Shown here piece after piece: positions 40,028-41,878 of a stretch of DNA of 64,000 nucleotides. The stretch is from Methanofollis aquaemaris (GTDB lineage Archaea > Halobacteriota > Methanomicrobia > Methanomicrobiales > Methanofollaceae), in NCBI RefSeq assembly GCF_017357525.1, contig NZ_CP036172.1, positions 1-64,000 of the forward strand. The letters are read 5' to 3'. A model generated the notes under the pieces. That model was not told where the DNA came from and did not search any database. It saw only the letters and a program-made list of their open reading frames with translations. A program made the translations under genes and the position numbers. The first letter of the stretch is position 1; every line of letters begins with the position of its first letter.

Positions 40028-40174
40028 ATGCGAAACGACTGGATCATCTTTGGCACCTGGATCCTCATTCTGGCCATCTTCTTCTTCGATTTCCACGCAC
40101 AACTCTCGGGGGTCATGGGAGTGATCGGGTTTGTGTCGGTCATCGTCGGCGCCCATGCCGAGGAGAAGACATAG
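40028..40174 (+). CDS. Short two-helix membrane protein
   Basis: The product is 48 aa from the ATG at 40028: MRNDWIIFGTWILILAIFFF, then DFHAQLSGVMGVIGFVSVIV, ending HAEEKT. Two hydrophobic helices are separated by a short polar turn. TATA-like ATAAATACA lies about 25 bp upstream. It lies between two copies of the dispersed repeat, 27 bp before the intact one at 40202. No family recognised. Confidence 0.5.
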   Translation: MRNDWIIFGTWILILAIFFFDFHAQLSGVMGVIGFVSVIVGAHAEEKT

Positions 40175-40588
40175 CCGACCCTTTTGTCACTCTCAAGTTT
40201 CGGCTCTGTAGAATCGGGCATGAACGTGGGGTTCAAACATGCGGGATGAAAATTTCTCGCCGCTTGATCGCTCTCTTTTCAAGACAGAAGAACTGGTGGA
40301 GACCTCACTCCATCGCCGCCCCTGCCTATCTTCGGTTCGTGGGGGGTCCGGGGGGCACCGCCTCCCGGCGCGAGACGGCGGTGAAGGTTCGACGATGGGG
40401 GGCGGCCGATCAGATCGACGTGCCTTCCCACACCACCATGCCGGGGCGCTGCTCCCGGTGTGAGCATGGGGGAAGGCGGTTGAATCGTACTCAAACCTAG
40501 AAAAAGTGAGGTTTTCTACAGGGCCCAAGTTTCAGATAATTCCCCGGGCCAGAAGAAGATATGAGGCCCGAAGGCCCGGCCCTCCCTT
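40175..40588. other. Intergenic filled by a complete MITE
   Basis: Nothing else is seen besides the element at 40202-40525 and its target duplication. Confidence 0.6.
40202..40525 (+). mobile_element. Complete non-autonomous element (MITE), 324 bp, with TIRs and 8-bp target duplication
   Basis: The left end GGCTCTGTAGAA and right end TTCTACAGGGCC are inverted repeats (11 of 12 matching). The flanks are identical 8-mers CAAGTTTC at 40194-40201 and 40526-40533, a perfect target-site duplication. The interior has the family modules CTTGATCGCTCTCTTTTCAAG, CCTATCTTCGG with a G/C hairpin, and GTGCCTTCCCAC, but no coding potential for a transposase. The 8-bp duplication and GG-starting ends recall ISL3- or IS1595-type transposition (inference). 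Confidence 0.85.
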
Positions 40589-41056
40589 TCAGGGGGCCTT
40601 CAGTTCCGGTATTTTCCGGCTGTATCCTGCCACCGTGCTCCCGCTGTACTGAACCGTGTGCCCCTTCAGCGCCTTCTTCAACTCTTTTCCGCTCGCACCG
40701 GCCGGAAGATCGAGCGGGGCGTCGGTGCCGTAGAGGTTGAAGTAGTACTCGTGCGCCGCCCCCTCAGACAGGCACGGGCCGCTGTACCCGATCTTCCCGA
40801 GGTCATTCTTCCCCTGCCGTGCCCGAATAGGAGACGAGACCTCCGGCTTTGCGGGAATCCCTTCAGGGATCAGGTCTGTTGCGGGGATGTTCCAGATGAG
40901 CCAGTGATCGACCTTTGCTCCCGGGTCGGTGAGAATGATCGCGATGTAGGGCGATTCCAACCTTGAAATACGAATTTCAGGTGAAATGTCCTCGCCTTCG
41001 CAGGTATGTCTCTTCGGAAAAATGTCGAATCCGATCTCTACAATAGGGTTTTCCAT
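40589..41056 (-). CDS. YbhB/YbcL family (phosphatidylethanolamine-binding-like) protein
   Basis: The product is 155 aa from the ATG at 41056, preceded by GGAGG in minus sense (GCGGAGGTATCGAGG); a longer frame to 41155 has no family features. It has GEDISPEIRIS, ILTDPGAKVDHWLIWNIP (the conserved D-P-A...H-W motif) and GKIGYSGPCLSEGAAHEYYF (the G-Y-x-GPCPP-like site), then YSRKIPELK. The PEBP fold binds anionic ligands; its archaeal role is unknown. It is monocistronic. Confidence 0.9.
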   Translation of the reverse strand: MENPIVEIGFDIFPKRHTCEGEDISPEIRISRLESPYIAIILTDPGAKVDHWLIWNIPATDLIPEGIPAKPEVSSPIRARQGKNDLGKIGYSGPCLSEGAAHEYYFNLYGTDAPLDLPAGASGKELKKALKGHTVQYSGSTVAGYSRKIPELKAP

Positions 41057-41271
41057 CCTCGATACCTCCGCAGGAATGTCGTACGTACTATATGAAAGGG
41101 GAAGGTTGTGAAGACATCTCGAAAGAGAGAGATGGAATCTGTTCCCTGTGATCAAAATGTGAGATCATCCCGGAACTCTCCTGCCTCACTCTTGCAGAAG
41201 ATCGAGATGGATGATGGTGGAGAGATCTTCACCTCCAGATAGCGCAAACATGCATCCATGACCTTTCCCTA

Positions 41272-41635: not shown

Positions 41636-41878
41636 GGCTTTGTACAAATCATCTTGATGGATCTCTTCGCCGGGGGGCTGGCCGCCCCCCGATCCCCCCG
41701 CATCACGATAGGGGAGTGGACTGCAACCCCCTCTCTGTGGTCATCTCTCCGCCTTCCCGACCTATCTTCATCCCGGGGGTCCGGGGGCAGCGCCCCCGGT
41801 ACAAGCATGAGGGAAGGCGATGGATTCAGTTCACAGGGGGGTCGTGGTGATGAAAAGAGGATGTTTTTCTACAGAGCC
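41636..41878 (+). mobile_element. Complete non-autonomous element (MITE), 243 bp, with TIRs and 8-bp target duplication
   Basis: Left end GGCTTTGTACAA and right end TTCTACAGAGCC are inverted repeats (10 of 12). Flanks are identical 8-mers CTTTTCTG at 41628-41635 and 41879-41886. The interior has CCTATCTTCATCCCGGGGGT and a perfect hairpin CCGGGGGC-AGC-GCCCCCGG (41781-41799). It is shorter than the 40.2-kb copy but bounded in the same way. Confidence 0.85.

What the first reader, a model, noticed from the sequence alone, without database searches (positions are those of the whole stretch)
40194..40533. Complete 324-bp non-autonomous element with 8-bp target-site duplication
Seen directly: GGCTCTGTAGAA at 40202 and TTCTACAGGGCC ending at 40525 are inverted (11/12), and the exact 8-mer CAAGTTTC flanks both sides. 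The interior lacks any transposase and consists of modules repeated elsewhere in the window. This is the structural signature of a MITE moved in trans. The 8-bp duplication and GG ends recall ISL3/IS1595 families, but the class is an inference.
Basis: partly seen in the sequence, partly recalled or inferred. Interest (0 to 1): 0.85.

Follow-up and report, generated by a model that had tools for sequence, protein, structure and literature searches.

The report
Jumping DNA moved by borrowed transposase
This is a 324-base-pair mobile DNA element without a gene of its own in a methane-producing archaeon (Methanofollis); it is one of many related copies, apparently moved by the enzyme of a larger mobile element (an IS5-type insertion sequence), and belongs to a well-known kind of genomic parasite.

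Summary
It is a real MITE. The same genome has 122 exact ends (reversed control: 0). Seventeen end pairs found there carry an exact 8-bp duplication. A related Methanofollis lacks the element at the orthologous place. I found the likely autonomous partner: IS5-family elements of about 0.95-1.0 kb with the same terminal repeat, 8-bp duplications and the same C/G-(A/T)6-C/G target preference; one copy even sits in CAAGTTTC. The host genome keeps only a broken copy, in which an IS end and a MITE end flank an inversion with an inverted 8-bp duplication, as expected if one transposase used both. The element is a chimera: its left 257 bp and right 83 bp occur with other partners elsewhere and overlap in a GC palindrome; a 612-bp relative carries the same two ends further apart. 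Known kind of element; new, unusually modular family. One puzzle: a nearly complete genome with 347 ends has no detectable partner transposase.

The parts
40194..40201 (.). left target-site duplication CAAGTTTC
   Evidence: identical to 40526-40533; the same octamer flanks an IS5-family copy in another genus, L052
40202..40213 (+). left terminal inverted repeat GGCTCTGTAGAA
   Evidence: 12/12 identical to an IS5-family end in L071
40202..40458 (+). left 'A' module (element positions 1-257)
   Evidence: found with other partners in other elements, e.g. the 612-bp element at 636040-636651 of the genome
40441..40458 (.). GC-rich palindrome CCGGGGCGCTGCTCCCGG in which the two modules overlap; likely join point
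   Evidence: A alignments end and B alignments begin here; related palindromes in most of the other elements
40443..40525 (-). right 'B' module (element positions 242-324)
   Evidence: 89-90% identical to the B end of 231-bp and 612-bp elements with other partners
40514..40525 (-). right terminal inverted repeat GGCCCTGTAGAA, continuing AACCTC like IS5-family ends
40526..40533 (.). right target-site duplication CAAGTTTC
40028..40174 (+). upstream small ORF (48 aa); it and the intergenic flank are conserved in the element-free locus of G005
   Evidence: read; flank alignment
40589..41155 (-). downstream convergent gene, phosphatidylethanolamine-binding protein family (PF01161)

Best explanation
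The feature is a complete non-autonomous DNA transposon (MITE) of 324 bp that inserted between two convergent genes. A DDE transposase of an IS5-family element with the same terminal repeat (GGCTCTGTAGAA, often followed by two or three variable bases and CCTC) moved it in trans: the enzyme binds both ends and joins them to a staggered 8-bp target of the form C/G-(A/T)6-C/G, and gap repair duplicates the octamer. The family, the duplication, the partner's existence and the shared target preference are shown by sequence. That this enzyme did the moving is inferred. The element is itself a chimera, probably an internal-deletion product of a longer composite (like the 612-bp copy) joined at GC-rich palindromes; this step is inferred and less certain.
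For: Multicopy family with a full-length relative at 92%. 122 exact ends against 0 control. 17 exact 8-bp duplications in the host genome; among 32 strict pairs 14 match at 8 bp against 0-1 at any other length from 5 to 12. More duplications in other Methanofollis genomes. Element-free orthologous places for three copies in G005. Autonomous elements with the same or closely similar ends and 8-bp duplications: 1008 bp in G005 (GAACAATC), 954 bp in G009 (CGAAAATC), copies in G004, G044, G020, G047 and G032. Transposase is IS5 family, NF033579 at 237 bits against a cut-off of 140. Same target preference for MITEs and IS elements, inner six bases 86% A+T in both sets in a 40% A+T window, outer bases mostly G/C. 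An IS copy in G047 uses CAAGTTTC itself. In the host genome a MITE-like end and the IS 3' end bound an inverted 418-bp piece of the transposase gene, each next to ACAAAAAC in opposite orientation, as expected if one transposase used both ends together.
Against: The host genome has no intact partner, only two fragments. G003, 99% complete with 347 exact ends, has no match to this transposase, and G010 none either; G004 has intact IS copies but almost no such exact ends. So abundance does not follow present transposase. The A end agrees with IS ends only over about 13 bases. The target octamer has diverged in the empty G005 locus, so that site is not base-exact.
Confidence: 0.85

Rival explanations
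1. A MITE mobilised by an ISL3- or IS1595-family transposase.
For: 8-bp duplication and GG ends resemble those families from memory.
Against: No PF01610 or PF12762 match in any of 12 genomes of the genus, while control genomes rang; an IS5-family partner with identical ends was found.
Confidence: 0.03
2. The MITEs are moved by another, undetected transposase (for example plasmid-borne or strongly diverged), and the IS5-family elements only share ends by common descent.
For: MITE-rich G003 has no detectable transposase of this type; A ends diverge from IS ends after about 13 bases.
Against: Same ends, same duplication length, same target preference, and a rearrangement that joins one MITE-like end and one IS end.
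Confidence: 0.12
3. A repeat kept for a structural or regulatory role (REP- or terminator-like hairpins between convergent genes) rather than a mobile element.
For: The element folds better than shuffles (z about -3), lies between convergent genes and is rich in GC palindromes.
Against: Sharp ends, exact 8-bp duplications at many copies, element-free orthologous places; no Rfam match. A secondary role is not excluded.
Confidence: 0.03

Closest known systems
IS5-family insertion sequences (NCBIfam NF033579 transpos_IS5_2; from memory compare IS903 ends GGCTTTGTTGAA and the 8-bp duplications of the ISH1 group)
   Same: terminal repeat, 8-bp duplication, target preference, found in the same genus
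   Different: the MITE has no transposase and shares only about 12-18 bp at each end; the interior is unrelated and G+C rich (60% against 42-44% in the IS copies)
Archaeal MITEs (Sulfolobus, Halobacterium, Haloquadratum; review PMC10969869)
   Same: short, non-coding, multicopy, terminal repeats plus duplication, moved in trans
   Different: a sequence family in another host order; ends occur as interchangeable modules, and MITEs fused into larger units carry their own outer duplications
MITE-bounded composite units (TIME-COMP type; abstract of PMC13367494)
   Same: outer ends of two MITEs define a larger unit with one duplication
   Different: IS5-type rather than Tn3-type ends; no passenger gene other than an IS transposase recognised in the units examined

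Membership tests
MITE | short element with terminal inverted repeats and target-site duplication | tested here: met
MITE | no transposase inside | tested here: met
   no ORF matches Pfam
MITE | multiple copies whose limits coincide | tested here: met
   copies at 237756 and 752686 of the genome align end to end
MITE | autonomous element with matching ends | tested here: met
   L071, L074 and others
MITE | element-free site in a relative | tested here: met
   window locus and two other loci in G005 lack the element; the octamer is not base-exact at the window locus
IS5-derived | partner transposase belongs to the IS5 family | tested here: met
   NF033579 237 bits, cut-off 140; a Y(2)R(3)E(6)K motif is readable in the protein
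IS5-derived | transposase acts on the MITE ends | not testable with these tools
   only indirect: shared ends and target, mixed-end inversion
IS5, ISH1 subgroup | placement in the ISfinder subgroup with 8-bp duplications | not tested
   ISfinder not available; recalled from memory
ISL3-derived | ISL3 transposase in the genus | tested here: not met
   PF01610: 0 of 12 genomes
IS1595-derived | IS1595 transposase in the genus | tested here: not met
   PF12762: 0 of 12 genomes
IS6-derived | IS6/IS240 transposase in the genus | tested here: not met
   PF13610: 0 of 12 genomes

The most novel reading that the evidence does not exclude
In Methanofollis the MITE ends behave as interchangeable cassettes: fusion of neighbouring MITEs and recombination at shared GC palindromes keep producing new left/right combinations that a single IS5-type transposase accepts, so a combinatorial MITE population goes on evolving and outlives the autonomous element.
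Probability: 0.4. Interest if true: 0.5.

Novelty: new member of a known kind. Interest (0 to 1): 0.35.

Why it matters
It names the likely motor of a large repeat family in Methanofollis for which I found no description (3 to 388 exact ends per genome). It corrects the guessed family and offers a natural case in which an IS end and a MITE end seem to have been used in one reaction. The uneven counts between sister species make it a usable system for asking how MITEs multiply and persist once their transposase is gone.

Tried and rejected
ISL3, IS1595 and IS6 transposase searches in the genus: nothing. Rfam scan of 36-48 kb: nothing. Plasmid and phage collections: no similar DNA. Solved structures for the transposase: no sequence match. 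The intact-frame transposase at 469 kb of the host genome (L070, 355 aa) was considered as partner; it is a different DDE protein below every NCBIfam cut-off and appears to have inserted into the IS5 copy. Promoter patterns: none found; the two terminator-like sites lie outside the element. Papers on MITEs in Methanofollis or Methanoculleus: none found in the library.

Full report
The observation. The sequence at 40194-40533 is as described: CAAGTTTC, a 324-bp unit that begins GGCTCTGTAGAA and ends TTCTACAGGGCC, then CAAGTTTC again. It is not chance. The genome in which the window lies (2.75 Mb, one contig) holds 122 exact GGCYCTGTWGAA sites and none of the reversed control pattern. BLAST finds 63 matching stretches in that genome, the best (after the element itself) a full-length copy at 92% identity.

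Target duplications. I fetched stretches around most of the related sites and paired inward-facing ends. In the host genome 17 pairs have an exact 8-bp duplication outside the ends and six more match in 7 of 8. Among 32 pairs with at most two mismatches in the two ends together, 14 have identical octamers; random re-pairing predicts 0.6. Pairs match at length 8 and practically never at lengths 5-7 or 9-12. Further exact duplications occur in other genomes of the genus.

Empty sites. In G005, a related species, the intergenic region between the same two neighbours has no element. The octamer region has diverged there, so the single-copy target cannot be read base by base. The loci of the 2168629 and 752686 copies are also element-free in G005; at the first, the alignment runs through the junction at about 80% identity with a target-like stretch and a 9-bp difference.

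The motor. DDE_Tnp_1 proteins do occur, and several lie in elements with the same ends. The clearest is 1008 bp in G005 (L071:1444-2451): GGCTCTGTAGAA and GGCCCTGTAGAA ends, GAACAATC on both sides. A 954-bp decayed copy in G009 has perfect ends and CGAAAATC on both sides. Copies in G004, G044, G020, G047 and G032 have related ends and 8-bp duplications. The protein is IS5 family by NCBIfam (237 bits, cut-off 140) and Pfam DDE_Tnp_1, and its motif YHQRNKVETAFSVLK fits the Y(2)R(3)E(6)K pattern known for the IS4/IS5 group (protein; pattern from memory). The B end of the window's element agrees with some IS ends over about 18 bases, the A end over about 13.

Shared target. Duplications of 28 MITE insertions (four of them near-exact) and 12 IS insertions show the same preference: six inner bases 86% A+T in both sets although the window is 40% A+T, outer bases mostly G or C. 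One IS copy in G047, another genus of the order, has CAAGTTTC on both sides, the same octamer as the window's element.

A mixed-end event. The host genome keeps one broken copy of this IS as two fragments, 467476-467895 (+) and 467891-468382 (-), 91-96% identical to the G005 protein. Reading the DNA, the 3' part of the transposase gene with its end is inverted. The inverted piece is bounded on one side by the IS 3' end next to ACAAAAAC, and on the other by the end of a MITE-like unit (same end type as the 355-bp element at 1448287, which has an exact duplication) next to the same ACAAAAAC in opposite orientation. In the G005 gene that octamer is present once at this place. An inverted target duplication is what intramolecular transposition leaves (established knowledge of DDE transposons). 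The simplest reading is that one transposase used one IS end and one MITE end together. This is an inference from sequence, but it is the most direct sign of cross-use.

Modular structure. The window's element is a join of two modules: positions 1-257 (A) and 242-324 (B) align to different parts of other elements. The overlap is the palindrome CCGGGGCGCTGCTCCCGG at 40441-40458. A 612-bp unit at 636040-636651, with its own exact duplication CCAATATG, starts with an almost complete B-type MITE (about 221 of 231 bp) and ends with an A half; it contains the same two ends with about 270 extra bases between. A 664-bp unit at 904777 has a similar plan. Related GC palindromes are found in most of the elements. 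I infer that the window's element, or its ancestor, arose by deletion between two such palindromes in a composite; the opposite direction is not excluded.

Distribution. The genus is Methanofollis, judged from named records that carry the A end (the window's own record is not named). Exact ends per genome range from 3 to 388: 388 in G001, 347 in G003, 150 in G005, 122 in the host, 85 in G009, and a handful in G002, G004, G006, G007 and G011. The counts do not follow present transposase: G003 has none detectable. The MITEs have probably outlived their motor in some lineages, or use another one.

Verdict. An ordinary kind of element, well supported, with its class corrected to IS5-type. The modular ends, the mixed-end inversion and the orphan abundance in G003 are the parts worth a specialist's time.

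Noticed in passing
41636-41878: A second complete element 1.1 kb away: 243 bp, exact duplication CTTTTCTG on both sides, different end types.
   Followed up: partly
39637, 21440, 46465, 48072, 15497, 43217 (+ strand): Further single or degraded ends of the same superfamily in the window.
   Followed up: partly
21676, 34666, 35572, 41281, 41775, 43574: GC palindrome CCGGGGGCGCTGCCCCCGGACCCCC recurs six times (0 expected by shuffling), at least once (41775-41799) inside a complete element of this superfamily; it gives spurious ORFs with the motif GALPPDP.
   Followed up: partly
L070 (host genome about 468.4-469.8 kb): A DDE transposase gene (355 aa, unrelated to the IS5 copy's) appears inserted in the 5' end of the broken IS5 copy; TACAGGAGGAT flanks it on both sides, suggesting an 11-bp duplication.
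   Followed up: partly
G003 (whole genome): 347 exact ends but no detectable transposase of the IS5_2 type; what moved the MITEs there is unexplained.
   Followed up: partly
L053:447-1706 and L089:1398-2885 (G005): Larger units (1260 and 1488 bp) with A ends on both sides and exact 8-bp duplications; the first is nearly all MITE modules, the second holds another IS5-like transposase gene.
   Followed up: partly
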